Both the position numbers and the translations under genes were made by a program. A DNA stretch of 64,000 nucleotides from an uncultured Dehalococcoidia bacterium (GTDB lineage Bacteria; Chloroflexota; Dehalococcoidia; Lucifugimonadales; CATQGZ01): NCBI GenBank assembly GCA_958295685.1, contig OY282365.1:952975-1016974 (forward strand), in the 5' to 3' direction. Shown piece by piece: positions 27,641-46,740 of this stretch; position 1 is the first letter of the stretch, and each line of letters starts with the position of its first letter. The notes under the pieces are model-generated. The model was not told where the DNA came from, did not search any database, and worked only from the letters and a program-made list of their open reading frames with translations.

Positions 27641-27767
27641 GGCCGCTACATCCTATCACGCATCCGGGCCCGGCGGGGCACAGCCGGCCGGCAGAGCGCC
27701 TGTGATTCTCGACGAGACGAAGCTGTTCAGACTCTGTGAGAACCCGAAAAGGGGGAGTCCAGAGGGG

Positions 27768-27902
27768 TTCTCCCCCTCTGGCAGGGGGCCTGGGTCACTG
27801 ACCACCGGCCACATGTTCTCCCCTCTGGCAGGGGGCCTGGGTCACTGACCACCGGCCACCGGCCACTGACCACTGTTCTCCCCTCTGGCAGGGGGCCTGG
27901 GG
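27768..27902. repeat. Three imperfect tandem repeats in a divergent promoter region
   Basis: TTCTCCCC-CTGGCAGGGGGCCTGG blocks begin at 27768, 27816 and 27876. The first two continue into GTCACTGACCACCGGCCAC. The first is preceded by a CCAGAGGGG/CCCCTCTGG hairpin (27759-27781). They fill the 352-bp gap between the divergent GNAT and nuclease genes. A TATAAT at 27954-27959 could serve the rightward cassette. Confidence 0.6.
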
Positions 27903-32504: not shown

Positions 32505-32845
32505 CGTGGCAGACCGAGGGTGGGATTCGCGCCCGGCGGCGCGTCTGCCAGTATATGCGCGGTCCGGGAGACGGTCAACGGCGGCACGCGCCCAGGCAGC
32601 GCCGGGCCGCCCTCAGAGACCCGGCGCAATCGCATCTGAGCGCCTCGACCCTGGGGTTTTTGCCGAAAACTGTCCCAAACTGTTCCATTTTGTCCCATCT
32701 CGTAGCTGAGGGTTCGATTTCGTGGAACAAATGTGGGGCACTTGTGGAACAGGTCTGGGACAGTTCCGGGGCAGTTCCGGGACAATTGTGGGACAGGTCT
32801 CTTCAGGGCTGCGAGGTCGACTGCTGCTGGGTTGGCTGCTTCCAT
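32501..32845 (-). CDS. Leaderless leader ORF of element C, 114 codons
   Basis: ATG 32845 is 6 nt after the -10 box, so the mRNA should start at or next to the AUG (leaderless). The frame runs through seven 11-bp repeats, which in three registers give an 11-residue peptide periodicity (PVPQLSRNCPG, TVPDLFHKCPT, FVPRN), and ends with a TGA overlapping the enolase-family start. No family is recognised. It may be a true small protein or only a device that carries ribosomes to the next gene. Confidence 0.45.
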   Translation of the reverse strand: MEAANPAAVDLAALKRPVPQLSRNCPGTVPDLFHKCPTFVPRNRTLSYEMGQNGTVWDSFRQKPQGRGAQMRLRRVSEGGPALPGRVPPLTVSRTAHILADAPPGANPTLGLPR

Positions 32846-32880
32846 GTGAGTAATATAGTACAGAGGTTCGCTGATGTCAA
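32650..32880 (-). promoter_or_regulatory. Leader element C: promoter plus 11-bp phased repeats
   Basis: Promoter TTGACA (32880-32875), 17 nt including GAACCTCTGTAC, TATATT (32857-32852), 6 nt, ATG. Then come seven units of exactly 11 bp (32796-32720, form CTGTCCCACAA), the core CAGCTACGA (32708-32700), and three inverted units (32697-32670, TGGGACAA, TGGAACAG, TGGGACAG) about 10 bp apart. The inverted units are exact complements of different forward units. Related to elements A and B by architecture, spacer and core. The rest of the 32505-32988 gap holds the end of the leader ORF and the gdhA promoter region. Confidence 0.65.
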
Positions 32881-32988
32881 GGCCTGCCGCCCAGACTCGT
32901 CAAAGCGCGACGGCCCAGAGCCGCGCTGCCTGGGCAGTCCGTTGTTGTATAATGGCCGTGCGAATACCGGCGGCAGACCCCCTGAAGG

Positions 32989-34248
<1,260 letters not shown>

Positions 34249-34320
34249 CGCCCAAGGCCGGCGCTGGCGTCGAGCGCGCCACACACACGACAGAGGAGAC
34301 TTCGCCCTACGGAGGCGCTC

Positions 34321-35403
34321 ATGAGTAGAGAGACGCGCGGCTGGACGGGAGCGGACCGGGCCAAGCCGGCGGAAGAGGTCGACATCCGGTACGGCCGCGG
34401 GCTGCTGAAGCGGGAGAGCTCGCAGTGGCCGCGCTACGCGGCGGTGACGACCCCCACCGCGTACGCGACCGCCGGGCCCTATCTCGGCAGGCAGCCGGCG
34501 GCCGTGGGATACGTCGACCTGCTCGACTGGGGCCAGTTGAAATCCCTGTCCGAGCGGCTGGACGTGGACGCCGACCTGGTGATCGGGCTGGGAGCGGGCA
34601 GAGCGCTGGACGCGTCCAAGTACGCCGCCCTGGCGCTCGACCTCCCCCTGATTCTCGTCCCGTCCGCCGTCTCGACGGGCGCCATCATCCACGCCATGGT
34701 AGCGAAGTGGGACGGACGCAAGATATTGGGCGGGACGGCGGACTGGCCCTGGGTGGAGTGCGAGCACGCCCTGATCGACTACGACCTCGCCCTGGAGGCG
34801 CCCTACTACCTCAACACCGGCGGGCTGGGCGACTGCCTGTCGGGCTACTCCGGCGTCGCCGAGTGGCGCCGCAACGCGAAGAACGGCCTGGGCCCGCCCG
34901 TCGAGGACGACGTCGTCGGAGAGGTGGTCGCCGGCTTCGACCGTATGGCGCGCGAGTTCCCGAAGACCCTGGACGAGGGCGGACGCCTCACCGCCGAGAG
35001 CATCCACTACATAGCCGTTGCCCTGCAGGAGAGGGACGGCAGGTCCCTGCGCCATCCTGCGGCCCCGGCAGCCGACCACCCATTCCTTCAGGCGATCGAA
35101 CTGGTGAACGACAGGGGCTGGGTGCACGGCGAGCTCGCCGCGCTGGGCGCGGTCATCGTAGCCTGGCAGTGCGGCGAGAGCCCCGAGACCCTCACGTCCT
35201 GGCTGGACCGCTGCCGGGTGCGGCGGACGCCCGCCGCGATGGGGGTGGGACGCCGCGAACTGCTCAGGGGACTCGAATTCTGCCCCGCGTACTTCAGCGA
35301 CCGGGAGTCGGGCCTGAGCCTCGACTCGATAATGGGCCGCGACCCCGTCGCGGGCGCCCGTTTCGACCGCCTCTGGGAGTTCCTGAACTCGGGGCCCGCG
35401 TGA
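34321..35403 (+). CDS. sn-glycerol-1-phosphate dehydrogenase-like (iron ADH superfamily)
   Basis: A 360-residue protein of the dehydroquinate-synthase/G1P-dehydrogenase superfamily. The NAD region is VIGLGAGRALDASKYAAL, followed by PLILVPSAVSTGAI. The metal-site region is LNTGGLGDCLSGY (Asp), with DHPFLQAIELVNDRGWVHGE supplying candidate His ligands. Closest pattern is the bacterial AraM/EgsA group that makes glycerol-1-phosphate; a generic iron-dependent alcohol dehydrogenase is the alternative. It follows gdhA on the same strand after 72 bp. Confidence 0.75.
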   Translation: MSRETRGWTGADRAKPAEEVDIRYGRGLLKRESSQWPRYAAVTTPTAYATAGPYLGRQPAAVGYVDLLDWGQLKSLSERLDVDADLVIGLGAGRALDASKYAALALDLPLILVPSAVSTGAIIHAMVAKWDGRKILGGTADWPWVECEHALIDYDLALEAPYYLNTGGLGDCLSGYSGVAEWRRNAKNGLGPPVEDDVVGEVVAGFDRMAREFPKTLDEGGRLTAESIHYIAVALQERDGRSLRHPAAPAADHPFLQAIELVNDRGWVHGELAALGAVIVAWQCGESPETLTSWLDRCRVRRTPAAMGVGRRELLRGLEFCPAYFSDRESGLSLDSIMGRDPVAGARFDRLWEFLNSGPA

Positions 35404-35470
35404 CCCCGCGGCCCTTCTTCCTCTATCTGCCCTCGACCTCTCCGACGCCCACCCGGACAGGACAGCCCGC

Positions 35471-35554
35471 ATGACGCGGCGATGGGACGCCTGGTTCGAA
35501 GAGGTCGCGGCCGGCTGGTGGGACGCCCAGAAGACAACCCGCTCCAACGGCTAG
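35471..35554 (+). other. Short frame of 27 codons in an otherwise empty gap
   Basis: ATG 35471 encodes a 27-residue Trp-rich peptide starting MTRRWDAWFEEVAAGWWD, with no ribosome-binding site. The gap 35404-35671 otherwise shows only a TATAAT at 35641-35646 serving the next gene. Probably not a real gene; possibly a remnant. Confidence 0.2.
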
Positions 35555-35671
35555 GGCCGCCGCCGCGCTTCGTCAGAACCTCCATCCCCACAATCCGCCT
35601 CGGCGTCCGTGACGAACCCAACCACCTTCGCCGCGGGTGCTATAATCGCCTCAGCCTGTGGGAGAAGCGAG

Positions 35672-36634
35672 ATGGATATGCCCTTGGAAAGCCTGCTCGC
35701 GTTGGTTGAAAGGTTGAGGGAGCGTATCGACGCGCACGGCAGCGACCTGCGCGGGAGCGAGGCGCTGACCCGTTACGCGCTGATCGACCCTATGCTCAGG
35801 GAATTGGGATGGGACACGGCCGACCCGTCGATGGTGACGCCGGAGTACAGGTCCGGGGAAGGGCGCGCGGACTACGCGCTCATGCGCGGCGGCAAACCCG
35901 TGATGATGGTCGAGGCCAAGAGTCTGGACGATACCCTGCAGGGCGCGGTATCGCAGGGAATAACCTACTGCTTGAAGGAGGGAACCAGCCACTTCCTGGT
36001 GACTAACGGGAAGCTGTGGGAACTCTATGAAACCCACAAGCCCGTTCCGGTAGAGGAGAAGCGGGTAGTCTCGTTTGACCTGAAAGGCCAATCCGCGGCT
36101 GAGGTGTGCCTGGCTGCTCTTGCCCTGTGGAGGCAGGGCGTGCAGGCGGGGTACGTAGCCCCAGGGCAGCCGCCTGTGGACGGGCCGTCGGAGGCAGAGA
36201 CCCAGCCCACCCCTATCCCGCCTCAGACAGCTACAGTATCTCAGACCGTCGTAAACGAACCCGAACCTGGGTGGGTGGCTCTTTCTGAGTTTGATCCCTC
36301 GACGGCGCGCCCGGCCATGATGAGGTTCCCCGACGGCGCAGACGCTCCCATAAGTACTTGGTACGAAATTCTTACGCTGAGCGCAAATTGGCTGTGGGAA
36401 AACGGGCACTTGAGCATCGAGCAATGCCCCATCTCCATGGGACCCAATTCGCGGAGATGCCTGGTAAGCGCCACACCAGAGCACCCAAATGGAAAATCCT
36501 TCTACTCACCTGTGAAAATTGGTCCACTTTACGTTGAAACTAACGTGAGCAGTAGGAGTGCCTTAAAGCACGCTAATCTCCTGATAGACCGCCTGCACCT
36601 GGACCCCGCGCAGTTCAAACTTCGTTCCCAATAG
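35672..36634 (+). CDS. Orphan HsdR-N-like (type I restriction) nuclease-domain protein
   Basis: A 320-residue protein. Residues about 5-150 match the N-terminal nuclease domain of type I restriction R subunits: LRGSEALTRYALIDPMLRELGWD, EYRSGEGRADYALM (Asp) and KPVMMVEAKSLDD (Glu-x-Lys), then ITYCLKEGTSHFLVTNGKLWELYE. There is no helicase part and no hsdM/hsdS near. A Pro/Gln linker leads to a C-terminal domain (about 200-320) that I do not recognise and that is AT-richer. ATG 35672 has GGGAGAAG upstream and a TATAAT at 35641; longer starts are less likely. Stand-alone HSDR_N proteins are common and poorly understood. Confidence 0.75.
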   Translation: MDMPLESLLALVERLRERIDAHGSDLRGSEALTRYALIDPMLRELGWDTADPSMVTPEYRSGEGRADYALMRGGKPVMMVEAKSLDDTLQGAVSQGITYCLKEGTSHFLVTNGKLWELYETHKPVPVEEKRVVSFDLKGQSAAEVCLAALALWRQGVQAGYVAPGQPPVDGPSEAETQPTPIPPQTATVSQTVVNEPEPGWVALSEFDPSTARPAMMRFPDGADAPISTWYEILTLSANWLWENGHLSIEQCPISMGPNSRRCLVSATPEHPNGKSFYSPVKIGPLYVETNVSSRSALKHANLLIDRLHLDPAQFKLRSQ

Positions 36635-36712
36635 TTGCCGGGTTGCGCGCGGGATGGGGCCGGGATGCCCTCCGCTGCGCAGGGTCAACCGTGGCCGGCC
36701 CAGACTCCGCCG

Positions 36713-37045
36713 CCAATCCTGACAATCCGCCAATCCTGAGAATCCTGATTCAGACAACCCTTGACGACCCCGAACCGCTGTGCTAGAGTATCCCCATGAC
36801 ACAGCCGCCTCTCTCCACAAACCGCCCGCAAGACTCCTGCATCGCCTGTCGCATAAGTGTCGCATAAGTGTCGCATAGTGTCGCATAAGTGTCGCATAAG
36901 TGTCGCATAAGTGTCACATAACTGTCACATAGTGTCACGTAATTCCGAGCCGTATAAGGCCCTCCCAGCTACGAAATGGCTTGCGGAATGCCCGAAAATC
37001 CGACACTTTCGCAAAAAATTCTCAGAGCCGCCGATCCCGCCAAGG
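36713..37045 (+). promoter_or_regulatory. Leader element A: promoter plus 11-bp phased repeats
   Basis: Begins with three to four CAATCCTG-type repeats (36713-36745). Promoter: TTGACG (36761-36766), 17 nt containing GAACCGCTGTGC, TAGAGT (36784-36789), 6 nt, ATG 36796. Nine tandem units follow (36846-36942; seven of 11 bp, two of 10 bp; form GTGTCGCATAA), then the core CAGCTACGA (36966-36974) and a terminal motif with an inverted unit (ATCCGACAC, 36999-37006). The element is an inverted repeat partner of element B; a 74-bp stretch around the promoter matches at 71 positions. It forms the 5' leader of the threonine aldolase gene. The rest of the 36635-37154 gap shows nothing else. Confidence 0.7.
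36796..36867 (+). CDS. Leaderless small ORF of element A, 23 codons
   Basis: ATG 36796, 6 nt after the -10 box, starts a peptide beginning MTQPPLSTN that ends inside the second 11-bp unit. Element B starts with MTQLPISTN at the equivalent place, so the N-terminus is conserved. A one-base deletion relative to B shifts the frame at codon 10; restoring it would give PARLLHRLS, close to PAGLLKRLS of B. Confidence 0.35.
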   Translation: MTQPPLSTNRPQDSCIACRISVA

Positions 37046-37154
37046 CGCCGGAAGACCCCAGGTCAGCCGGTCAGGGGATGGCTCTGGGGACTCGTCCGTG
37101 GTTAGCGTTTGCCGAGCGATGTTGATAGAATTGGCCGCCTGAAGGAGCAGCCGA

Positions 37155-38195
37155 ATGGACGTCATCAACTTTCACAGCGACACGGCCACCCTGCCCTCCC
37201 CGGAGATGCGCCAGGCCATCTTCGAGGCCGAGATGGGCGACGACGTCATGGGCGACGACCCGACCGCGAACCGCCTGCAGGAGATGGCCGCCGACGTGCT
37301 GGGCAAGGAGGCCGGACTCATCGTCAGCAGCGGCACGATGGGCAACCTCGTCGCCGCCCTCGTCCACTGCGGGCGCGGCGACGAGATGATCATCGGCGAG
37401 CTCTCCCACATGAACAGGGGCGAGGCCGGCGGCGCATCCGTCCTGGGCGGCGCCGCCATCAAGACGCTCATGGAGGACGACCGCGGCCGGCTCGACCCCG
37501 ACGAGGTGAAGGACGCGATAAAGCCCGACAACATACACTACCCCCGCACCGCTATGGTGGCCATAGAGAACACCCACAACGCCACCGGCGGGACTCCCCT
37601 GACCCCGGAGGACACGAAGGCCGTCGCCGACGTGGCACACGAGCACGATCTGAAGCTGCACGTGGACGGCGCGCGGCTCTTCGACGCCGCCGTCGCCCTG
37701 GAGACCCCGGCCGCCGAACTGGTCAGGGACGCCGACAGCGTCAGCTTCTGCCTCTCCAAGGGCCTCGGAGCGCCGATCGGCTCCGTGCTCTGCGGAACCC
37801 ATGAGTTCGTCGACCGGGCCAGGCGCTGGCGCAAGATACTGGGGGGAGGCATGAGGCAGGTCGGCGTCTTCGCCGCCGCAGGCATCTACGCCCTGGAGCA
37901 CAACGTCGACAGGCTGGCGGAAGACCACGCGAACGCCCGCAGACTGGCGAAGGGGCTCGCAGACATACCCGGCATCTCCATCGACCTCGACAGGGTCCGC
38001 ACCAACCTGGTCTTCTTCGAGGTGACCGCCGGCGACCCCGCCGAGCTCGCCCGCAAGCTGGAGGAGAGGGGCGTGAGAGGAGGAAGCCCGGAGCGCCGCT
38101 GGCGCTTCGTCCCACACTACGGCATCACCCCAGACGACGTAGACCGCGCCCTCGACGTCATCGATTCCGTGTTCAGGGAGTACGCCAAATCATGA
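37155..38195 (+). CDS. ltaE: Low-specificity L-threonine aldolase
   Basis: PLP enzyme splitting threonine or allo-threonine into glycine and acetaldehyde. A 346-residue protein with the typical opening NFHSDTATLPSPEMRQAI, GDDVMGDDPTANRL, SGTMGNLVAAL, the PLP aspartate block KLHVDGARLFDAAV and the PLP lysine in SFCLSKGLGAPIGS. AAGGAG eight nt before ATG 37155. The stop overlaps the next start (ATGA). Preceded by the 400-nt leader with element A. Confidence 0.93.
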   Translation: MDVINFHSDTATLPSPEMRQAIFEAEMGDDVMGDDPTANRLQEMAADVLGKEAGLIVSSGTMGNLVAALVHCGRGDEMIIGELSHMNRGEAGGASVLGGAAIKTLMEDDRGRLDPDEVKDAIKPDNIHYPRTAMVAIENTHNATGGTPLTPEDTKAVADVAHEHDLKLHVDGARLFDAAVALETPAAELVRDADSVSFCLSKGLGAPIGSVLCGTHEFVDRARRWRKILGGGMRQVGVFAAAGIYALEHNVDRLAEDHANARRLAKGLADIPGISIDLDRVRTNLVFFEVTAGDPAELARKLEERGVRGGSPERRWRFVPHYGITPDDVDRALDVIDSVFREYAKS

Positions 38196-39247
38196 CCGAC
38201 CAACACCTCTCAGGCAAGGCGCAGACCGTCCTCGGGCCGATAGACCCCGGCCGGCTCGGACGCACACTCACCCACGAGCACCTAATCTTCGACGGCGCCT
38301 GGGTGAGGAAGTGGCTGCCGAACGCCAGCGACCAGGCCTTCTACGAAGCCCCCGTCTCCCAACAGACCCTCGGCAGGATCCGGCACCGCCTCAAGCCAAA
38401 CCGGGACAACGGACGGCTGGATGACGTCCAGACCGCCATAGACGAGGTCGGGCTGTTCAAGCAGTACGGCGGCGGCACCCTCGTCGACGCGACCAGCATC
38501 GGGATAGGCCGCGACCCCGTAGCCCTGTCGAGAATCTCCCACGCCACCGGCGTCAACGTCATCATGGGCAGCTCCTACTACGTGCACACCCACCACTTCC
38601 CGGGGATGGACGACCTCACCGAGGACGACCTCGCCGCCCGGATCGTCGCCGACGTCACCCAGGGGGCGGACGGAACGGACATAAGATCGGGTATCATCGG
38701 CGAGGTCGGCTGCGACTGGCCGCTGACCGACAACGAGCGGAAGGTGCTGCGCGCCTCCGCGAGGGCGCAGCGAATCACCGGCGCCCCGCTGCTCATACAC
38801 CCCGGCCGCAGCGAGACGGCGCCGCTGGAGATAATCGAGTTCCTGGACAGGGCGGGCGCCGACCTCTCGCGCACCATCATGGGCCACCTCGACAGGACGG
38901 TCTTCGAGCGCGCCACGCTCATGAAGATCGCCGAGGCCGGATGCTACATGGAGTGGGACCTGTTCGGATGGGGCGGCTCCTACTACTCCCTCAACCTCGC
39001 CATCGACATGCCCAGCGACGACCAGCGCCTGGAGCGCATCGCGTGGATATCGGGGCAGGGATACGACCGCAAGGTCGTCGTCGCGCACGACATATGCAGC
39101 AAGCACCGCCTCGAAAAATACGGCGGCCACGGCTACTCCTACATCCTCGACCACATAGCGCCCAGGATGCTCCACCGAGGCTTCACCCCCGAATCCGTCC
39201 ACCGCGTCCTCGTCTCCAACCCGGCCGAGGCCCTCACGTTCGCATGA
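38192..39247 (+). CDS. Phosphotriesterase-family metal hydrolase
   Basis: A 351-residue amidohydrolase-fold protein of the PTE/PHP family. Metal ligands are visible in LTHEHLIFDG (HxH), the GEVGCDW block, LLIHPGR, IMGHLDR and the Asp of VVVAHDICSK. Members act as lactonases or esterases; true phosphotriesterase activity is uncommon. The bridging lysine of PTE appears to be replaced by Glu (IGEVG), which occurs in several subfamilies. Translationally coupled to threonine aldolase and to the following mini-protein. Confidence 0.85.
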   Translation: MTDQHLSGKAQTVLGPIDPGRLGRTLTHEHLIFDGAWVRKWLPNASDQAFYEAPVSQQTLGRIRHRLKPNRDNGRLDDVQTAIDEVGLFKQYGGGTLVDATSIGIGRDPVALSRISHATGVNVIMGSSYYVHTHHFPGMDDLTEDDLAARIVADVTQGADGTDIRSGIIGEVGCDWPLTDNERKVLRASARAQRITGAPLLIHPGRSETAPLEIIEFLDRAGADLSRTIMGHLDRTVFERATLMKIAEAGCYMEWDLFGWGGSYYSLNLAIDMPSDDQRLERIAWISGQGYDRKVVVAHDICSKHRLEKYGGHGYSYILDHIAPRMLHRGFTPESVHRVLVSNPAEALTFA

Positions 39248-39327
39248 AGCTCCACCCCCGCGTCGTGGTCTGGGCAATAATCCTGACGGTCTTCGTAATA
39301 GTCGCGGCTCTGTCCCTGAATGACTAA
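39244..39327 (+). CDS. 27-residue single-pass membrane mini-protein
   Basis: ATG 39244 overlaps the phosphotriesterase-family stop (ATGA). The product has a short basic N-terminus (MKLHPR) and one hydrophobic helix (VVVWAIILTVFVIVAALSL). The coupling and clear membrane segment make it a plausible real small protein; function unknown. Confidence 0.5.
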   Translation: MKLHPRVVVWAIILTVFVIVAALSLND

Positions 39328-39361
39328 CGCCTGGATAACTGACCACTCGCCACTGACCACT

Positions 39362-39381
39362 CGCCGCGCCCGGGCGCGGCG
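39362..39381. terminator. GC-rich perfect hairpin after the ltaE operon
   Basis: CGCCGCGCCC-GGGCGCGGCG is a perfect 20-bp palindrome, followed by TTGTCATT. It is preceded by two CTGACCACTCGCC repeats (39339-39364). It lies between the ltaE operon and ilvE and could act as a terminator, though the T-run is weak. Confidence 0.5.
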
Positions 39382-39410
39382 TTGTCATTCCGATAGGGTG
39401 CGATTATAAT
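39382..39410 (+). promoter_or_regulatory. Promoter of ilvE
   Basis: TTGTCA (39382-39387), 17 nt, then a consensus TATAAT (39405-39410), 32 nt before the ilvE ATG. Confidence 0.8.
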
Positions 39411-39442
39411 CTCGCCAGTATCCACCTGAGGAGCCGGAGACG

Positions 39443-40372
39443 ATGCCCGAAGCCCTCGCCTTCTTTCGCGGAAAGATCGTGCCCCTCGAGGATGCGAGGG
39501 TGAGCATCACCACCCACGCCCTCCACTACGGCACGGCCGTCTTCGAGGGCATCCGCGGCAACTGGAACGAGGAGCAGCGGAAGCTGTACGTCTTCCGTAT
39601 GCGCGAGCACTACGAGCGGCTCCTCCAGGGCTGCAAGATGATGCTGATGGACATCCCATACTCGGTGGACGACCTGTGCGGCATCACCATCGAGCTCCTT
39701 CAGAGCTGCGCCTACCGCCAGGACCTCTACATCCGACCGATCGTCTACAAGAGCGAGGAGCTCGTGGCCAACCTGAAGCTCCACGAGCTTGAGAGCGACT
39801 TCTCGCTGGTCACGGTCCCGTTCGGAAACTATATCGAGGCGGACGGAGCCATACGCTGCCGCACCTCCTCCTGGCGGCGGATCGACGACACGGCCATCCC
39901 ACCCAGGGTCAAGATATCGGGCCACTACGTGAACAGCATCCTGGCAAAGACGGAGGCGACCCTCGCCGGCTATGACGAGGCCATCATGCTCAACCAGGAC
40001 GGGAACGTCTCCGAAGGCTCCGGCGAGAACCTCTTCCTGGTCGCGGACGGCGCGATCCACACCCCACTGGTATCCGAGAACAACCTCAAGGGCATCACCA
40101 AGGACTCGGTGACGAAGATCGCCGCTAGGGAGATGGGGCTGGGCATCGTCGAAAGGAGCATCCGGCGCAGCGAGCTCTACCTGGCCGACGAGGTCTTCCT
40201 GACCGGGACGGCGGCTCACATAACACCCGTCGGCGAACTCGACAACCGACCGATAGGGTCGGGAGACCAGGGCCCAGTCACCTCCAGGCTCCGAGACTAC
40301 TACCTGGACATCATCAAGGGCGGCAATCCGGACTACCTCGACTGGTGCGCCGAGGTCCCCATGGAGGCATAG
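39443..40372 (+). CDS. ilvE: Branched-chain amino acid aminotransferase
   Basis: Fold-type IV PLP transaminase for Leu, Ile and Val. A 309-residue protein with ITTHALHYGTAVFEGIRGN (about 22-40), the PLP lysine block RVKISGHYVNSILAKTEA, EAIMLNQDGNVSEGSGENLF, GITKDSV and VFLTGTAAHITPV. GAGGAG and GGAG precede ATG 39443. A strong promoter is present upstream. Confidence 0.95.
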   Translation: MPEALAFFRGKIVPLEDARVSITTHALHYGTAVFEGIRGNWNEEQRKLYVFRMREHYERLLQGCKMMLMDIPYSVDDLCGITIELLQSCAYRQDLYIRPIVYKSEELVANLKLHELESDFSLVTVPFGNYIEADGAIRCRTSSWRRIDDTAIPPRVKISGHYVNSILAKTEATLAGYDEAIMLNQDGNVSEGSGENLFLVADGAIHTPLVSENNLKGITKDSVTKIAAREMGLGIVERSIRRSELYLADEVFLTGTAAHITPVGELDNRPIGSGDQGPVTSRLRDYYLDIIKGGNPDYLDWCAEVPMEA

Positions 40373-40395
40373 CGGGACACCCCACCCGGTCACAG

Positions 40396-40836
40396 ATGTT
40401 CACGTTCGCGGCCGACTACTTCATAATGGTCACGGTTGCCAGCGTGGGGGCGATCCAGTTCGCGGCTGCCCACGCAGGACTTAGAGGACTCCTGTTCGTC
40501 GGGCGCGCGTCCCTCGCCAGGGGGCTGGGCGTCGTCCTGATCATAGTGGGAATATCCCTCTTCTTCGGAACCGCGGAACGCAACCTGAACGACTACGAGG
40601 GCGGCCTGGACGCCAACGCCCAGGCCATCTTCTTCTTCCTGGGAGTGCTGGCCGGATTCGGCGTCACCGCGCTCGTGTCCACCCTGCTGAACCTGCGCAT
40701 GACGGGACGGGACGGAGCTCCGACCGGAGGCTTGGACTCGCTCAGAGACTCGAACTTCGCCGCGGCGCTGGCGCGGAGCCTCGGCTACTGGACAAGGAAT
40801 TGGCGAACGCAGACGAGACGATATTTCTCTGGATAA
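40396..40836 (+). CDS. Small membrane protein, unknown
   Basis: A 146-residue protein with three probable membrane segments (start to about 20, about 42-60 with LGVVLIIVGISLFFG, about 78-100 with AIFFFLGVLAGFGVTALVS) and a hydrophilic tail. ATG 40396 is chosen because an upstream start would overlap ilvE out of frame. Its end overlaps the PAP2 gene start by 37 bp, so the two are probably one unit. Confidence 0.6.
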   Translation: MFTFAADYFIMVTVASVGAIQFAAAHAGLRGLLFVGRASLARGLGVVLIIVGISLFFGTAERNLNDYEGGLDANAQAIFFFLGVLAGFGVTALVSTLLNLRMTGRDGAPTGGLDSLRDSNFAAALARSLGYWTRNWRTQTRRYFSG

Positions 40837-41390
40837 ACGGACTCGTGGGCAGGGCCGCGCCCATAGACGAGACCGTTCGATTCCTGAGCAGCGACTACCT
40901 GGCCCCGGTTAGCCTCGGCCTGGTGCTCGTCGGGATGTGGTTCACCGGTGAAGGGCAGCTGGAAAGGCAGCGCCGCCAGATCGGGCTATACATCGCGCTC
41001 GCCGCCATGGGTCTGTCGAGCCTGACGGTCCTGATCATAAACTCGTTCTACTTCAGGCCCCGCCCATTCGACGGCATCGAGAACCACGAAGTGGCGCTGC
41101 TCTTCTATCGACCGACGGACTCGTCCTTCCCCTCCAACTCTGCGGCGGCGGCGTTCGGCATAGCCGCCGGGGTATGGGGCGTGAACCGCCCTCTGGGTAC
41201 CGCGCTGCTGGTCGTCTCCGGCCTGTTCGCCCTCTCTCGCGTCTACGCGGGCGTCCACTACCCCTCGGACGTCGTCGCAGGCGCGCTGATCGGGTGTGCG
41301 GTCGCCTTCCTCGTGTTCAGGGTCAGGTCACTGCTCGGACCGATCCCGGAGTGGACATTGAAAGCGGCTAGGATCCTCTGTTTAGCCTAG
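40800..41390 (+). CDS. PAP2-superfamily membrane phosphatase, degenerate active site
   Basis: A 196-residue, six-helix-type membrane protein like undecaprenyl-diphosphate phosphatases. Motif 3, SRVYAGVHYPSDVVAG (Ser-Arg, His, Asp), is intact. Motif 1 ends in FRPRPF but lacks the expected lysine, and motif 2 reads FPSNSA in place of PSGH, so the acid-base histidine is Ser. It may be inactive or changed in function. The start is TTG 40800 with AAGGA close by. Confidence 0.75.
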   Translation: MANADETIFLWINGLVGRAAPIDETVRFLSSDYLAPVSLGLVLVGMWFTGEGQLERQRRQIGLYIALAAMGLSSLTVLIINSFYFRPRPFDGIENHEVALLFYRPTDSSFPSNSAAAAFGIAAGVWGVNRPLGTALLVVSGLFALSRVYAGVHYPSDVVAGALIGCAVAFLVFRVRSLLGPIPEWTLKAARILCLA

Positions 41391-41477
41391 AACCTCCACC
41401 GGTTACTTCGTAAACTGGAGTGGTCACGAGTCGCCGCACGGTGGTCCCGGACGCCATGCAGCAGTGGAGGCCACTCG

Positions 41478-42887
41478 ATGGAACACAGACCCGCGCCTGA
41501 TGAGGTCCCGGCCCCCACGACGGGCGAAGCCGTCTACGCCAGCACGCTGACGAAGCCCATAGTCGATCTGCTGGAGAACGGGCTGGACATAGAAGCCCTG
41601 ACACGCTTCATACGGCTGCGCCCGCCGGACCAGGCCGACGTCCTCGACCACCTAACGCCGGAGACCCTCAGACTGCTGCTCGATCTCCTCCCTCACGAGG
41701 CGGTCGGGGCTATAGTCGAAGACCTCGAACCCGAAGCCGCCGTAACGATGTCCCTGGCGATGCCCGCCCACCGCCTGCCGTTCGTCCTCGACGAGACCAG
41801 CCCCGAAGTGGCGGCCGACGTGCTCAGGGCGCTCCCGCGCGAGGTCTCGGCGCAGGCCCTGGGAGGCATGAGCAGGTCCGCAGAGGTGTCTCCACTGCTG
41901 GGCTACGAGGACGATGCCGCGGGGGGCCTGATGACCCCGGACTTCGTCGCGCTCTACGACGACATGTCGATCGAGCAGGCAACCGCGTTCGTCAGGAGGT
42001 GGGCCAGAGACCTCGCCCCGCAGGACATATCCTACCTGTTCGTCGTCGATAGAAGGGGGGCGCTGAGCGGCGGGATGAGCCTCGCCGAGCTGGTGCTGGC
42101 GCAGCCCCATCAGCATGTCTCCCTGCTGATGCAGCGTGACATATTCTCGGTCGGCACCGAGACGGACCAGGAGGAATGCGCCAGGCTCATGGAGCGCTAC
42201 AACCTGCAGAGCATGCCGGTCGTGGACAAGGCGGGGGCGCTCGTGGGCGTGCTGAAGATGGAGGACATGCTCAGCGTGCTTCAGGATGAGGCCACCGAGG
42301 ACATGTACCGCATGATCGGCGTGTACGAAGAGGAGAAGGCTCTGGGCCCGTTCTGGCGCTCCGTGCGTGGCAGACTGCCGTGGCTGATCGTCAATCTGGC
42401 CACGGCGGTGCTCGCCGGACTCGTGGTGATCCTCTTCGAGTCCACGCTCCAGCGCGCGGTGATACTCGCGGCGTTCCTGCCCATCGTCGCCGGGCAGGCC
42501 GGGATCGCCGGAACCCAGACGCTTACGGTGGTCGTCAGGTCGATCGCGCTCGGCGAAGTCACCGGCGCCAACACCTCCCGCCTGATCCTCAAGGAGATCA
42601 GTCTGGGAGTGGTCCACGGGCTGGCGATAGCGGTCCTGGTGGGCGCCGTTGCCCTGGCCTGGACGGGGAGCGGCTACCTCGGACTGGTCGTGGCGGCGGC
42701 CATGCTGCTGAACCTCGTGGTCTCAGGCGTGAGCGGGGTATTGGTCCCCCTGGGATTCAAGGCCTTGAGGGTGGACCCGGCGCTCTCGTCGGCGGTGGCA
42801 GTGACGGCCACGACGGACATAGTGGGCTTCCTGGTCTATCTGGGACTGGCCTGGGCCGCAATAGAGCCGATCTCACGGACCCTGTGA
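41478..42887 (+). CDS. mgtE: Magnesium transporter MgtE
   Basis: A 469-residue Mg2+ channel/transporter. The order is the acidic superhelical N-domain (residues about 30-150, including FVLDETSPEVAADVLRALP), two CBS domains (about 150-275, YEDDAAGGLMTPDFVAL, LMQRDIFSVG, MPVVDKAGALVGVL) and a five-helix membrane domain with PIVAGQAGIAGTQTLTVVVRS, the conserved pore motif. Start ATG 41478. The 87-nt upstream gap is too short for a magnesium riboswitch, and none is seen. Confidence 0.94.
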   Translation: MEHRPAPDEVPAPTTGEAVYASTLTKPIVDLLENGLDIEALTRFIRLRPPDQADVLDHLTPETLRLLLDLLPHEAVGAIVEDLEPEAAVTMSLAMPAHRLPFVLDETSPEVAADVLRALPREVSAQALGGMSRSAEVSPLLGYEDDAAGGLMTPDFVALYDDMSIEQATAFVRRWARDLAPQDISYLFVVDRRGALSGGMSLAELVLAQPHQHVSLLMQRDIFSVGTETDQEECARLMERYNLQSMPVVDKAGALVGVLKMEDMLSVLQDEATEDMYRMIGVYEEEKALGPFWRSVRGRLPWLIVNLATAVLAGLVVILFESTLQRAVILAAFLPIVAGQAGIAGTQTLTVVVRSIALGEVTGANTSRLILKEISLGVVHGLAIAVLVGAVALAWTGSGYLGLVVAAAMLLNLVVSGVSGVLVPLGFKALRVDPALSSAVAVTATTDIVGFLVYLGLAWAAIEPISRTL

Positions 42888-42965
42888 AGACGGGACTCTC
42901 CCAGTCCCGCGCGCCGCTGATTGAGATATAATCGGCTCAACAAAGACTGAGCGATGGAGGAACCG

Positions 42966-43946
42966 ATGACGGCTCGAAACATGGTCGACCGTTTGAAGGC
43001 AGGCGAAGCGCTTTTGATGGACGGCGGCACCGGCTCTGAGCTGCAGCGCAGAGGGGTGGACGTTCTGAAGGGCGCGACATCCATGCTGAAGGCGTGGTCG
43101 GCCACGTCTAACATCGAGAACGCCGACGTGGTGCGTCAGGTACATCAGGATTACCTTCGCGTGGGCGCGGACATAATCATCAGCAACAACTTCTGGACCA
43201 CTCCGTCCGCGATGGAGCGCATCGGGCTGCGTGACCGCTGGAAGGACTATGCGAAGGCCGCTGCCGATAACGCGGTCGAGGCACGGGCCGCAGGGAACCC
43301 CGATGCCTACGTCGCAGGCGGCATCGCCGCCCCGACTCTGCACGTCCGAACCGGCGAGGATGCTCCGGACGTCGAGCTGATGGGGGCCGATGCCTTCCGC
43401 GAGGAGTACACTGAGCACGCGGAGCTGCTCGCGGAGGCGGGCACGGACGTGATCCTCGCGGAGTACGTCGGCTTCATCGCCGACTGCGTTGCCGCGGTAG
43501 ACGCCTGCGCGGAGGCCGGCCTGCCGGTCCTCCTCGGGGTCAGACACCTCCATCCGGACGGCACGATGCAGTTCGGCGAGAGCCTCGAAGACCTGGCCGC
43601 CGCTCTGAGGGGGCGCCCCGTGGACGCGGCGCTGATCATGTGCAGCAACCCGGAGGCGGCGTCGGCCGGGCTCCCGATACTGGCGAACGCTTTCGACGGT
43701 CCGGTGGGCATCTACCCGAACATCGGATACAACCCGACTGGACCGCTGGCGAACAAGCCCAACCTCACCAATCAGCTCCCGAGCGCAGGGCCGGACATTC
43801 TGCAGACGGAGAGCTACCCTCCCTCGCGGCTCGCGGAGCTCGCCGGCGAGTGGAAGGAGATGGGCGCCCAGATCATCGGCGGCTGCTGCGCAGCGGGGCC
43901 CGAGCACATCATGGCCATGCGGCCCGTGGTCAAGGGAGACCGGTAG
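42966..43946 (+). CDS. Homocysteine S-methyltransferase family protein
   Basis: A 326-residue zinc methyltransferase barrel. LMDGGTGSELQRRGV opens the fold; the zinc cysteines are in IMCSNPEA and in GGCCAAGPEHI. It probably transfers a methyl group to homocysteine from a methylated thiol or betaine. GGAGG five nt before ATG 42966 sets the start. A TATAAT lies at 42927-42932, inside a TTGAG/CTCAA inverted repeat. Confidence 0.87.
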   Translation: MTARNMVDRLKAGEALLMDGGTGSELQRRGVDVLKGATSMLKAWSATSNIENADVVRQVHQDYLRVGADIIISNNFWTTPSAMERIGLRDRWKDYAKAAADNAVEARAAGNPDAYVAGGIAAPTLHVRTGEDAPDVELMGADAFREEYTEHAELLAEAGTDVILAEYVGFIADCVAAVDACAEAGLPVLLGVRHLHPDGTMQFGESLEDLAAALRGRPVDAALIMCSNPEAASAGLPILANAFDGPVGIYPNIGYNPTGPLANKPNLTNQLPSAGPDILQTESYPPSRLAELAGEWKEMGAQIIGGCCAAGPEHIMAMRPVVKGDR

Positions 43947-43965
43947 CCCCAAGTCCCCACCTCCG

Positions 43966-44745
43966 TCATTCCCCGCGTTCGCGGGGGTCCGTCCCGCAGT
44001 CGGTGCATTCCACGTCACTGGCTGGCTCATTCCCCGCGTCCGCGGGGTCCATGCCCGGCGGGGCGCGCCTTTGCGCTCCAGGAAGCGGTTCGCTGCGCCG
44101 CTCGGCCGGATCAGGCGGTGGATCTTGGGTAGCCTCGGCCTCCCACCATCGCGCGCCGAGCATCAGCCGCGCGATGCGGCCCGACAACGAGGCGGCGTAG
44201 TTCAGCACGTGGAGCGACAGAATGCCGAGCAGGATGCCGAACGGCGCCACGAGCAGCGACTCGCCCAGGGTATCGACCGTCCAGGGACCGACGGGTATGG
44301 CCGCGGCGAGGTGTACGACCGGAGCCGCTGCTAAGGCAACGCTCGTACCCAGCAGGGCCGCCGTGAGAAGGAGTGAGGCGAGACCCAGCGGGAGCTTTGC
44401 CAGTAGAAAGAACATCCCCGTCCATATCGACGGGTCCGCCGCCCGTCCGACGAGCCTTCTCCACGCGGGCCCCCCGGGGTCGACCGGCAAGAGTGGAGGG
44501 ACCTTCTCGTGGAGGAGTCTGATCGCCAGCTCCCGCTCCAGGCGCATGAGCGCCCAGGCCGCCAGGTGCACCAGCAGCAGGATCGGTATTCCGACGAGGG
44601 TGAGGATCAGGGCAAAGCCGGCCGCCAGCCCGACGGTCAGGAAGAGGAAGTAGGCCAGCCCCAGCGGGAAGGCCAGCAGCAGATAGACGAGGTTCAGATA
44701 GGTCTGAAGCCGGACGAGAACGCGCGGAGCGGCGAGTATCTCCAT
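43966..44745 (-). CDS. Membrane protein resembling the two-component sensor-associated domain
   Basis: A 259-residue protein with two pairs of membrane helices (FPLGLAYFLFLTVGLAAGFALILTLVGIPILLL; LLAKLPLGLASLLLTAALLGTSVALAAAP) separated by a loop, the pattern of the 'Sensor' domain found beside histidine kinases. No kinase is attached or adjacent. The last 20-30 residues are encoded by GC-rich hairpin repeats shared with the intergenic region, so the natural C-terminus may have been altered. The stop lies 20 bp from the convergent methyltransferase gene. Overlaps the pgi stop by one base. Confidence 0.65.
   Translation of the reverse strand: MEILAAPRVLVRLQTYLNLVYLLLAFPLGLAYFLFLTVGLAAGFALILTLVGIPILLLVHLAAWALMRLERELAIRLLHEKVPPLLPVDPGGPAWRRLVGRAADPSIWTGMFFLLAKLPLGLASLLLTAALLGTSVALAAAPVVHLAAAIPVGPWTVDTLGESLLVAPFGILLGILSLHVLNYAASLSGRIARLMLGARWWEAEATQDPPPDPAERRSEPLPGAQRRAPPGMDPADAGNEPASDVECTDCGTDPRERGE
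43973..44049. repeat. Two ATTCCCCGCG hairpin repeats
   Basis: CCCCGCG-TT-CGCGGGG (43973-43988) and CCCCGCG-TC-CGCGGGG (44034-44049), each preceded by CATT, lie between and at the end of convergent genes. They resemble short dispersed palindromic repeats and may terminate both transcripts. Confidence 0.6.
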
Positions 44746-46352
44746 CAGAGAGCGGAGAGCACCCGATCCAGGTCGACTCTGGCCGTGCGGCGGCCCAGGG
44801 ATTTCAGGGAGCGAAGGTCTCCGATCGCCTGCGCTGCCGCAACCGCGCCGAAGGTGAAGGGCCGCCCCGGAATCTCCACGTCCCTCTCGGCCTCCGAGGT
44901 AATCTGAAGGAACAGGCCCGATTCCGGCCCTCCCTTGTGAAGCTGCCCTGTGGAGTGCAGGTATTGAGGGCCGTAGCCGGCCGTGGTCGCTATGTTGCGC
45001 TCCTCCATGGCCCGGCGTCTCAGGGCCGCGAGGGCGCGCTCCGTCTCGCGCGTCCTGGAGACGAAGGCCAGTATCGACAGATAGTCACCCGCCTTCGATT
45101 GGCTGAGGAGGTCTTCGAAAGACCCCTCCGGCTCCATCTCAGGCAGCCTACCGCGCCGGACGAAGTCATTCACAACGGCGGCCGTGTCCTTCTTCGTGCT
45201 CTCTACGTTGGGCTGTGTGAACGGGTGCACACCCAGGAGGGCACAGGCCACGGCTGCCGCGAATTGCCAGCGAAAGATTTCGGCGCCCAGGTCGTGCTTG
45301 TCCCGCAGGGCCAGACGCAGGACGGGGTGCCCGGCCTCCTCCAGATCCCGAAGCGCTCCGTCGAGGCCGTCGTTATCGCCGCCGTCCACCCTGAGGTGGA
45401 CGAACAGCCGGTCACCGCCGTAGCGCTCGGGCGGCAGGATGGGTTCGTCGATTATCGGGATGATCCCCTTCCCGTCCTTGCCCGTACTCTCGGCGATCAG
45501 CTGCTCCACCCAGGGACCGAAGCCGCGCACCGAGGGCGAGGTGACCAGGGTCATCTTGTCGCGGCCCTGTTCAGCCATTGCGGCCATGACCGCCCCGAGG
45601 TAGGCGCCCTGGTTCTCCCGAGCGGGGCCGTCTCTCAGGCAGGCCCGTCTCATGCCTTCCGCCCTGGCAAGCATCTCTCTCAGGTCGACGCCGGTGAACG
45701 CCGCCGGGGCGAGTCCGAAGCAGGTGAGCGCCGAGAAACGGCCTCCGACGTCGTGTGGACTCGTGAAGACACGTCGGAAGTTCTGCTCGCGCGCCAGCTC
45801 GTCCAGAGGCGTGCCCTCGTCCGTGATCGCCGCGAAGCTGGCGCCTGTCGACGGCCCCGGCCCGCGCGCGGCGGCCAGGCCCTCGAAGAAGTCATACAGC
45901 AGGCGGGTCTCGAGCGTCGTGCCCGACTTGGACGCCACGAGGAACAGGGTTCGGCTGGGCTCCACTGCGGCCGCGGCGGAGGAGACGGCCCCTGGGAGGG
46001 TCGAGTCGAGCAGGATCAGTTCGGGGAAGCCGTCTCCGGCTCCGAAGGCGCGCCGGAAGACCTCCGCGCCGAGGCTGCTGCCTCCCATCCCGAGCAGCGC
46101 CACGCGCCGGAACCCTGCGTCCCGCACCTCGGCGGCAAATGCCTCGTAGTCGGAGACTTGCCCGCGCACGCCGCCTGCCGGAGCGAGCCAGCCCAGACGG
46201 TCCGATATGCTCTCCGGGCCGACGGCCCACACTGTGTGGTCTCCGCGCTGGATGCGGCCGATCACGCCGCGGTCATCGAGCGCGGCTAGGGTTGATTCGA
46301 CCGCTCCCATGCCCGAGGACACGGGCGCTATCTCGTCGAACTCGTGTGACAC
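44745..46352 (-). CDS. Glucose-6-phosphate isomerase-like SIS protein
   Basis: A 535-residue protein matching the isomerase half of transaldolase/phosphoglucose-isomerase fusions, here standing alone. It has ALLGMGGSSLGAEVFRRAFG, LFLVASKSGTTLET, a middle block FGPWVEQLIAESTGKDGKG, and the late catalytic segment YLHSTGQLHKGGP. It interconverts glucose-6-P and fructose-6-P. The start is GTG 46352 without a clear ribosome-binding site; a frame starting in the element B array (46540-46328) overlaps it. It lies downstream of leader element B. Confidence 0.85.
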   Translation of the reverse strand: MSHEFDEIAPVSSGMGAVESTLAALDDRGVIGRIQRGDHTVWAVGPESISDRLGWLAPAGGVRGQVSDYEAFAAEVRDAGFRRVALLGMGGSSLGAEVFRRAFGAGDGFPELILLDSTLPGAVSSAAAAVEPSRTLFLVASKSGTTLETRLLYDFFEGLAAARGPGPSTGASFAAITDEGTPLDELAREQNFRRVFTSPHDVGGRFSALTCFGLAPAAFTGVDLREMLARAEGMRRACLRDGPARENQGAYLGAVMAAMAEQGRDKMTLVTSPSVRGFGPWVEQLIAESTGKDGKGIIPIIDEPILPPERYGGDRLFVHLRVDGGDNDGLDGALRDLEEAGHPVLRLALRDKHDLGAEIFRWQFAAAVACALLGVHPFTQPNVESTKKDTAAVVNDFVRRGRLPEMEPEGSFEDLLSQSKAGDYLSILAFVSRTRETERALAALRRRAMEERNIATTAGYGPQYLHSTGQLHKGGPESGLFLQITSEAERDVEIPGRPFTFGAVAAAQAIGDLRSLKSLGRRTARVDLDRVLSAL

Positions 46353-46409
46353 GTCAGCCCCAAATCGCCCGTCCGGTTGACCGGGGCGCCGCTCCGGTCC
46401 CCAGCGCCG

Positions 46410-46740
46410 GCAGCCTCCGGGGATCGGAGGCTCCGGGAATTTTTCGCGTAAGTGTCAGATTTTGCGGGCTTCTCCCGTAGCTGAGTCGTAGCTGAGAGGG
46501 CTGCTTTTTTGTCCGACACTTTCTGACAGTTATCCGACACTAATCTGACAGTTATCCGACACTAATCTGACAGTTATCTGACACTAATCTGACACTTTCT
46601 GACAGTCGCTTCAGGAGTCCTGCGGGCTGGTTTGTGGAGATGGGCAGCTGTGTCATGGGCATACTCTAGCACAGCGGTTCGGTGTCGTCAAGGATTGTCT
46701 GAATCAGGATTCTCAGGATTGGAGGATTGGCAGGATTGGG
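46410..46740 (-). promoter_or_regulatory. Leader element B: promoter plus 11-bp phased repeats
   Basis: Reads leftward. CAATCCTG repeats (46740-46700), TTGACG (46691-46686), 17 nt with GAACCGCTGTGC, TAGAGT (46668-46663), 6 nt, ATG 46656. Nine tandem units (46605-46509, forms CTGTCAGATTA and GTGTCGGATAA), two core copies CAGCTACG (46494-46486, 46483-46475), then an inverted unit AATCTGACAC (46461-46452) that is an exact 10-nt complement of the second unit. A GCCTCCG/CGGAGGC hairpin follows (46427-46409). It forms the leader of the pgi-like gene and is an inverted partner of element A, 10 kb away. Confidence 0.7.
46552..46656 (-). CDS. Leaderless small ORF of element B, 34 codons
   Basis: ATG 46656 six nt after the -10 box starts MTQLPISTN, continues through LLKRLSESV and reads into the tandem units (VSDNCQISVG) before TAA at 46552. 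Its N-terminus matches the element A peptide. The 11-bp units ending in TAA supply stop codons in one register. Confidence 0.4.
   Translation of the reverse strand: MTQLPISTNQPAGLLKRLSESVRLVSDNCQISVG

What the first reader, a model, noticed from the sequence alone, without database searches (positions are those of the whole stretch)
32650..46740. A three-member family of leaderless-ORF leader elements with helically phased 11-bp repeats
Three intergenic elements (C 32880-32650 minus, A 36713-37045 plus, B 46740-46410 minus) share one layout: TTGAC[AG], a 17-nt spacer with GAACCnCTGTnC, TA[GT]A[GT]T, exactly 6 nt, ATG. Then come 7-9 tandem units of 11 bp (a few of 10), a CAGCTACGA core and inverted unit copies. 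The shared -10-to-ATG distance implies leaderless transcripts. Each lies 300-400 nt upstream of a co-directional gene with a different function (MR-type enolase-superfamily enzyme, ltaE, pgi-like). A conserved spacer plus one-turn phasing could seat a regulator along one DNA face, or the transcript could be an RNA switch. I know of no described element with this set; that is a statement about my knowledge, not a search result.
Basis: partly seen in the sequence, partly recalled or inferred. Interest (0 to 1): 0.87.

Follow-up and report, generated by a model that had tools for sequence, protein, structure and literature searches.

The report
Mobile DNA-damage promoter with phased repeats
The three elements belong to a family of about 190 scattered copies in one Chloroflexota genome; each carries what looks like a DNA-damage-responsive promoter and most carry a ladder of evenly spaced repeats, and by a rough gene call most sit upstream of a gene and point at it.

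Summary
The layout matches 3 times in the window (0 expected) and about 190 times in the 2.67-Mb genome (192; 196). I read 188 copies, 182 with the core. The conserved spacer is a LexA/SOS-type box: the genome's own lexA and recA promoters carry GAACN4GTCC, a relative's dinB promoter matches the element promoter, and 32 of 47 examined lexA upstream regions carry such a box against 0 of 47 coding controls. The 18 fixed promoter letters are intact in 179 of 188 copies while spacer letters drift. Subfamily C1 is a MITE: 26 of 36 copies keep at least one 25-bp inverted end, 11 both; 11 of 18 paired-end elements show 8-bp target duplications. By crude ORF calls the next gene is co-directional for 159 of 168 core-bearing copies with a call. 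Diverged homologues occur elsewhere in the order. Best reading: a mobile, LexA-type outward promoter module. Induction, leaderless starts and read-through are inferred; the array's role is unresolved; an RNA switch is not supported.

The parts
36761..36798 (+). Element A: -35 TTGAC (36761-36765), LexA-type box GAACCGCTGTGC (36772-36783), -10 TAGAGT (36784-36789), start ATG (36796-36798)
   Evidence: box by comparison with lexA/recA promoters
36847..36936 (+). Element A: tandem 11/10-bp array TGTCGCATAAG, about 8 units
36966..36974 (+). Element A: core CAGCTACGA
37000..37009 (+). Element A: inverted unit copy CCGACACTTT
37155..38195 (+). Downstream co-directional gene, ltaE-like (Beta_elim_lyase). 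A block ending in TG-N-TAGAAT (about 37109-37131), similar in same-genus G001, lies between element and gene; the consensus scan did not call it a promoter
46654..46691 (-). Element B: TTGAC (46691-46687), box GAACCGCTGTGC (46680-46669), -10 TAGAGT (46668-46663), ATG (46656-46654)
46512..46604 (-). Element B: tandem array TGTCAGATTAG / TGTCGGATAAC
46476..46496 (-). Element B: core duplicated with an 11-bp period (CTCAGCTACGA CTCAGCTACG)
46449..46459 (-). Element B: inverted unit copy TCTGACACTTA
44745..46352 (-). Downstream co-directional gene, PGI domain (E 4e-8)
32843..32880 (-). Element C (subfamily C1): TTGAC (32880-32876), box GAACCTCTGTAC (32869-32858), -10 TATATT (32857-32852), ATG (32845-32843)
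32722..32800 (-). Element C: degenerate tandem array TGTCCCACAAT / TGTTCCAGACC
32700..32708 (-). Element C: core CAGCTACGA
32671..32696 (-). Element C: inverted array of three units GGGACA / GGAACA / GGGACA, 10-bp spacing
   Evidence: spacing over the family
31407..32504 (-). Downstream co-directional gene, mandelate racemase/enolase superfamily

Best explanation
A dispersed family of small elements that carry a portable LexA-type promoter facing outward into the next gene. When DNA damage inactivates LexA, the promoter should start transcription at or next to the ATG (leaderless) and run through the phased repeat array, the core and on into the co-directional gene; the array probably seats a protein on one DNA face, or tunes pausing or read-through. 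Copies of subfamily C1 were moved by a transposase acting on 25-bp inverted ends with 8-bp target duplication; how the A and C2 copies spread is not known. Shown: copy number, likeness of the box to recA/lexA/dinB promoters, conservation of promoter and box letters, inverted ends and target duplications in C1, 5' co-directional placement by crude gene calls. Inferred: LexA binding, induction, leaderless start, read-through, the function of the array.
For: About 190 copies. Own lexA promoter carries GAACGAATGTCC in both orientations; own recA upstream region has TTGACACGGCGAACTTTTGTCCGTATACT, box in the -35/-10 spacer as in the elements; of 5 non-own hits of the element promoter pattern one begins 120 nt before a DinB ORF; of 47 lexA upstream regions examined (the closest 47 of 80 loci fetched) 32 hold GAACN4GTNC or GNACN4GTTC, coding control 0 of 47. 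Eighteen fixed letters: 179 copies with 0, 9 with 1, none with 2 mismatches although 2 were allowed; in 68 C copies box halves and -35 are 100% but the 5-nt gap 69%, box N4 73%, -10 inner letters 51%. Paired 25-bp TIRs in 18 elements (12 with the promoter module), TSD >=6 of 8 in 11 of 18 (8 of the 12), 6 exact; 1000 shuffles mean 0.8, max 4. Next gene co-directional in 161 of 174 copies with a call, 159 of 168 among core-bearing ones; between tandem genes 53 copies point with the genes and 2 against; divergent 73, convergent 9. Terminator-like sites between element and gene in 2 of 152, antisense control 2. Diverged homologues in G040, G047 and others, with an SOS-like promoter at -180 to -185 from the core in 10 of the 12 G040 copies where the pattern found one (14 read).
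Against: No expression data; LexA binding is untested. The second half-site is mostly GTGC/GTAC rather than GTTC, a weaker dyad, and 15 of the 47 lexA regions showed no such box. In A copies the box centre is also 98% conserved, so the contrast with drifting letters is weaker there. recA and lexA have box-bearing promoters of their own below the element, so the outward promoter may add little. Co-directional placement can also arise because antisense-pointing copies are purged; gene calls were crude and 19 of 188 places overlap a called ORF. Downstream genes show no common function in a sample of 30. At least 3 copies (class D: L218, L219, L220) join the same array and core to a plain promoter with no LexA box. 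Only 4 of 110 A-array and 2 of 30 C2 copies show a C1-type inverted end, and most A copies show no other. Six of 12 G040 promoters lack ATG/GTG at the start position, and in G047 placement is co-directional in only 1 of 3. The array's role is not explained by the LexA model.
Confidence: 0.6

Rival explanations
1. Selfish element only: promoter, box and array are left over from the 5' end of a LexA-controlled transposon and its subterminal transposase sites; the host gains nothing, and co-directional placement only reflects loss of copies that would fire antisense.
For: C1 has TIRs and 8-bp TSDs; the array and its inverted copy resemble paired subterminal arrays (layout of IS607-family ends, passages of PMC6188088); leaders differ between subfamilies like deleted genes.
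Against: Promoter and box letters are nearly invariant while adjacent letters drift, clearest in C, which inert non-autonomous copies do not need; the promoter-core layout recurs in other families of the order. No autonomous parent was seen, but an IS66-type transposase search was not run.
Confidence: 0.3
2. RNA leader or attenuator: the transcript folds through pairing of the inverted copy with one of the array units and controls the downstream gene.
For: The inverted copy's variable dinucleotide follows the array's: mode equals inverted in 50 of 97, shuffles 24.6 sd 4; still 0.50 against 0.34 sd 0.03 when shuffled within leader clusters. Element C can form a stem of about 20 bp (z -2.7); A copies fold slightly better sense (-1.2) than antisense (-0.5).
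Against: Fold z-scores are modest and not stronger on the sense strand in C; elements A and B z -0.9 and -0.5; no Rfam match for A and C; recA and lexA have promoters of their own below the element; DNA inverted repeats or template-switch correction explain the co-variation equally well.
Confidence: 0.12
3. Array as binding site of a tandem-repeat-reading regulator (OmpR/PhoB-like 11-bp direct repeats, recalled) that acts on a native promoter of the gene downstream.
For: 10-11 bp phasing of array units; placement upstream of genes that keep their own promoters, such as recA and lexA.
Against: Unit letters vary between copies in one genome (GC, AG, AC, GG, GT), unlike one fixed recognition sequence; the array-to-inverted distance is not in clean helical steps (46-47, 50-51, 56-58, 60-61, 69-71); no regulator was identified.
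Confidence: 0.2

Closest known systems
BrickBuilt MITE of Porphyromonas gingivalis (PMC4596501; abstract and passages read)
   Same: Multi-copy intergenic MITE with an internal tandem-repeat array and promoter activity, discussed there as a possible putative mobile promoter
   Different: 19 copies, 23-nt units, bidirectional promoters, no LexA operator mentioned in what I read; here about 190 copies, 10-11 bp units, one LexA-type promoter pointing at the gene, homologues in other families of the order
IS607-family transposon ends (PMC6188088; passages read)
   Same: Helically phased direct motifs at one end, fewer motifs at the other
   Different: IS607 makes no target duplications and encodes TnpA with an N-terminal DNA-binding domain; here 8-bp duplications in C1, no TnpB match, and the three resolvase-family matches have the catalytic domain first
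IS66-type elements (recalled: ends beginning GTAA, 8-bp duplication)
   Same: C1 ends begin GTAAC; 8-bp duplication
   Different: No transposase of this family was searched for; nine of twelve paired-end copies with the module are 311-327 bp
LexA-controlled promoters (recA, lexA, dinB)
   Same: Box GAACN4GTNC; in recA and dinB it lies between -35 and -10
   Different: Here the promoter is dispersed in about 190 copies and followed by an array and core

Membership tests
MITE (subfamily C1) | Short element with terminal inverted repeats | tested here: met
   25-bp TIR; of 36 C1 copies 11 have both ends, 15 one end, 10 neither at <=5 mismatches; paired-end copies with module 276-370 bp
MITE (subfamily C1) | Target-site duplication | tested here: met
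   >=6 of 8 bases in 11 of 18 paired-TIR elements, 6 exact; among the 12 with module 8, 4 exact
MITE (A and C2 copies) | Terminal inverted repeats | tested here: inconclusive
   Four A copies of 657-686 bp (L071, L090, L132, L140) and L001 (472-bp span) have TIR CCTGTCYCAGATTAGTAGGC; most of the A copies show none; C1-type ends in 4 of 110 A-array and 2 of 30 C2 copies
MITE | Autonomous partner with matching ends | not tested
   Listed TIR places show no pair at full IS length, but the list is truncated; IS66 transposase family not searched
IS607 family | No target duplication; TnpA with N-terminal DNA-binding domain | tested here: not met
   TSDs present in C1; 3 resolvase matches, catalytic domain first, one with a stop inside; no TnpB at E<=0.01
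RAYT/REP (Y1 transposase) | Y1_Tnp gene or domain | tested here: not met
   0 PF01797 in genome at E<=0.1; 4 MPNHVH-type C2 leader peptides tested, no Pfam match; C2 count 30
LexA-regulated promoter | Box as in the lineage's lexA/recA promoters, overlapping the promoter | tested here: met
LexA-regulated promoter | LexA binding and damage induction | not testable with these tools
   needs experiment
Riboswitch / structured leader RNA | Match to a described family or significant fold | tested here: not met
   element C alone reaches z -2.7

The most novel reading that the evidence does not exclude
A mobile element has wired some 160 or more unrelated transcription units, recA and lexA among them, into the DNA-damage response of one bacterium by planting LexA-controlled leaderless promoters upstream of them, with the phased array acting as a tunable, self-matching (array equals inverted copy) rheostat; the module is old enough to recur in other families of the order.
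Probability: 0.3. Interest if true: 0.88.

Novelty: new variant of a known kind. Interest (0 to 1): 0.72.

Why it matters
One genome offers about 190 copies in several 5' versions, with an identifiable operator, internal controls (array-core copies without the LexA box, class D; TIR elements without the module) and a same-genus genome with no match to the promoter, so the question whether transposition can build a stress regulon becomes directly testable by one damage-response RNA-seq experiment.

Tried and rejected
IS607-type ends as identity: rejected, kept only as a works-like comparison. RAYT/REP origin: MPNHVH-like relic in 30 C2 leaders, but no PF01797 in the genome and no Pfam match for four leader peptides; left as a recalled resemblance. 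tRNA-linked integration: ARAGORN on 60 loci found tRNAs in 2; rejected. Coding role of the leader: ATG-to-array distance is not kept modulo 3; rejected. Perfect palindromic SOS box CGAACN4GTTCG: 0 in the genome; the boxes of lexA and recA here are asymmetric. Exact C-core patterns: 0 in genome contigs and viral contigs (records of the own genome may be left out there). A C1 copy against phages, element A against plasmids, an L143 fragment against phages: no match. Core pattern over 393 genomes of the class: only the own genome; I did not see G040, which carries the core, in that list, so the draw is not exhaustive; the order-wide model search scored at most 14 candidates a genome with strict filters. 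My first split of C copies into C1 and C2 (53 and 17) was wrong because its pattern also caught C2 leaders; one search replaces it (36 and 30). One of the 188 places (L100) looks like an ordinary gene promoter without array or core; five more lack the core. Literature; nothing listed there describes this element; apart from two papers read in passages, papers were seen only as listings.
Full report
What is there. The described layout is exact at the three given places and not expected by chance. The whole genome (2.67 Mb, 6 contigs) has 192 places at up to 3 mismatches with 0 for the reversed control, and 196 with a looser letter set at up to 2 mismatches. From stretches around the listed places I extracted 188 distinct copies; 182 also hold a CAGCTACGA-like core. 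By a recount these are 110 with the A-type array (ATGACACAG... and near variants), 36 C1 (ATGGAAGCAGCC...), 30 C2 (leaders with an MPNHVH-like peptide), 6 other C-like and 6 without core; one of the last (L100) looks like an ordinary gene promoter. A further version (D, L218-L220) joins the same array and core to a plain TTGACA/TATAAT promoter with a Shine-Dalgarno-like leader.

Array and core. In A-type copies neighbouring units are 11 bp (548) or 10 bp (261) apart, the other 18 spacings being 18, 21, 22, 32 or 33, with no 9 or 12. In C-type copies 382 are 11 bp, 9 are 12, 8 are 6, 2 are 10 and 12 are other; their inverted units (three in 65 of 70) are 10 bp apart in 125 of 133 spacings and 9 in the rest. 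The core-to-inverted distance in A falls mainly at 26-27 (54 of 97) or 36-40 (40 of 97), but the distance from the last array unit to the inverted copy is spread over 46-47, 50-51, 56-58, 60-61 and 69-71, so only the array itself is cleanly phased. The core is duplicated with an 11-bp period in element B. The variable dinucleotide of the inverted copy matches the array mode in 50 of 97 A copies (shuffle mean 24.6, sd 4; 15 of 112 copies had no scorable inverted copy); the match persists when shuffling only within clusters of similar leaders or tails (0.50 against 0.34 and 0.30). Template-switch correction, DNA or RNA pairing, or co-recognition could each cause this.

The spacer is a LexA-type box. 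The genome's lexA gene (L182) has GAACGAATGTCC in both orientations around its promoter. recA (L063) has TTGACACGGCGAACTTTTGTCCGTATACT upstream. Of 5 hits of the element promoter pattern outside the own genome among 59 relatives, one (L032, same order) begins 120 nt before a DinB ORF (Pfam IMS); the other four did not show such a gene. Of 47 lexA upstream regions examined (the closest of 80 loci fetched), 32 contain GAACN4GTNC or GNACN4GTTC, several with the asymmetric GTGC/GTAC half seen in the elements; coding-region control 0 of 47. The closest lexA relatives are named Chloroflexi, SAR202 cluster and Dehalococcoidia MAGs, which places the window in or near that lineage. A perfectly palindromic CGAACN4GTTCG does not occur in the genome.

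Selection on the promoter. In 188 copies the 18 fixed letters show 0 mismatches in 179, 1 in 9 and never 2, although 2 were allowed, so the conservation is not produced by the search cut-off. In 68 C copies -35 and both box halves are 100% conserved; the gap before the box is 69%, the box centre 73%, the -10 interior 51%, upstream flank 57%. In 104 A copies the gap is 69% and the flank 66%, but the box centre is 98%, so the contrast there is weaker. Start triplets: ATG 165, GTG 18, ACG 5.

Mobility. Of 36 C1 copies 11 keep both 25-bp TIRs, 15 one and 10 neither. Among 18 elements with paired TIRs (12 with the module, 6 without), 11 have duplications matching in at least 6 of 8 bases (8 of the 12), 6 exact; shuffled pairs gave 0.8 on average and at most 4. 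The TIR pattern occurs 123 times in the genome. A few A copies have a different TIR (four of 657-686 bp and L001); for most A and C2 copies no ends were found. In the same-genus genome G001, ltaE and the enolase-superfamily gene have no element upstream, and ltaE shares a block ending in TG-N-TAGAAT, although in the window the consensus scan calls only the element's own promoter in 36700-37200. G001 has 0 promoter matches and 2 weak core-model hits, one convincing by eye.

Placement. With a crude codon-model ORF caller, the next gene is co-directional in 161 of 174 copies with a call (14 had none; 19 of 188 places overlap a called ORF). Between tandem genes 53 point with and 2 against the genes; 73 lie between divergent and 9 between convergent genes. 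Among the 182 core-bearing copies it is 159 of 168; among the six without core 2 of 6. Intrinsic-terminator-like sites between element and gene: 2 of 152, same as the antisense control. Thirty sampled downstream genes are mixed; 28 had a Pfam match, one of them RecA.

Beyond this genome. A sequence-only model of the C core found matches in 5 of 250 order genomes including the own: G040 (14, the most that were scored), G047 (5), G001 (2), G247 (1). For G040 I read 14 loci: the pattern found a TTGA..GNACN4GTGC..TA promoter in 12, 10 of these at -180 to -185 from the core; the downstream gene is co-directional in 9 of 11 with a call, one of the nine 2 kb away; 6 of 12 keep ATG or GTG at the start. 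Of three G047 loci with promoter, 1 is co-directional. The promoter-box-core layout is thus found outside this genome.

What it is not. No Rfam match for the window at gathering scores except a tRNA, nor for elements A and C at E<=1. RNA fold z-scores are -0.9, -0.5, -2.7 for A, B, C, and means over 20 copies each are -1.2 sense and -0.5 antisense (A), -1.8 and -2.1 (C), so no clear RNA-specific signal. No Y1 transposase, no TnpB, no IS607-like TnpA recognised.

Reading. A mobile, outward-facing LexA-type promoter module. The nearest published analogue I found is BrickBuilt (PMC4596501, abstract and passages). What differs is the SOS-type box, the copy number with orientation bias, the phased array with co-varying inverted copy, and homologues in other families. 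Induction and effect on genes remain to be shown.

Noticed in passing
window 46875-61787 (-): A 4970-aa ORF with fibronectin type III repeats (12 stretches in the C-terminal 1600 aa) and a DNA-level tandem repeat of about 300 bp x 45.
   Followed up: partly
L156, L136, L151, L053, L182 (C2 copies): Leader peptides like M..FV.(M/V)P(N/T)HVHGI resemble the HUH motif of Y1/RayT transposases (recalled); four tested gave no Pfam match and the genome has no PF01797 gene.
   Followed up: partly
L218, L219, L220: Array and core behind a plain promoter with a Shine-Dalgarno-like leader and no LexA box: a natural control class.
   Followed up: partly
L057, L018, L139: Elements of 234-237 bp with the same TIR but no promoter module; L057 and L018 have exact 8-bp duplications.
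   Followed up: no
L063 and L182: Both recA and lexA have a family element upstream of their own LexA-box promoter.
   Followed up: partly
L105, L143, L024, L088, L100: The six promoter copies without core are not mainly co-directional (2 of 6), unlike the core-bearing ones; numbers too small to judge.
   Followed up: no
L025, L155 downstream of A copies: Repeated coding fragment ...YELAERRLLTLDDKLTRARPKSL..., resembling a PIN/VapC toxin piece (recalled), travels with some A copies.
   Followed up: no
window 36710-36748, 46705-46739, 27767-27859: Other short repeats: AATCCTGA-like 9-mers left of A copies, and a CTCTGGCAGGGGG-type 47-bp repeat (also seen in fetched flanks).
   Followed up: no
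L166: A C1 element lies within CTGATTCAGACA, the typical left flank of A copies, with the duplication GATTCAGA: nested insertion.
   Followed up: no
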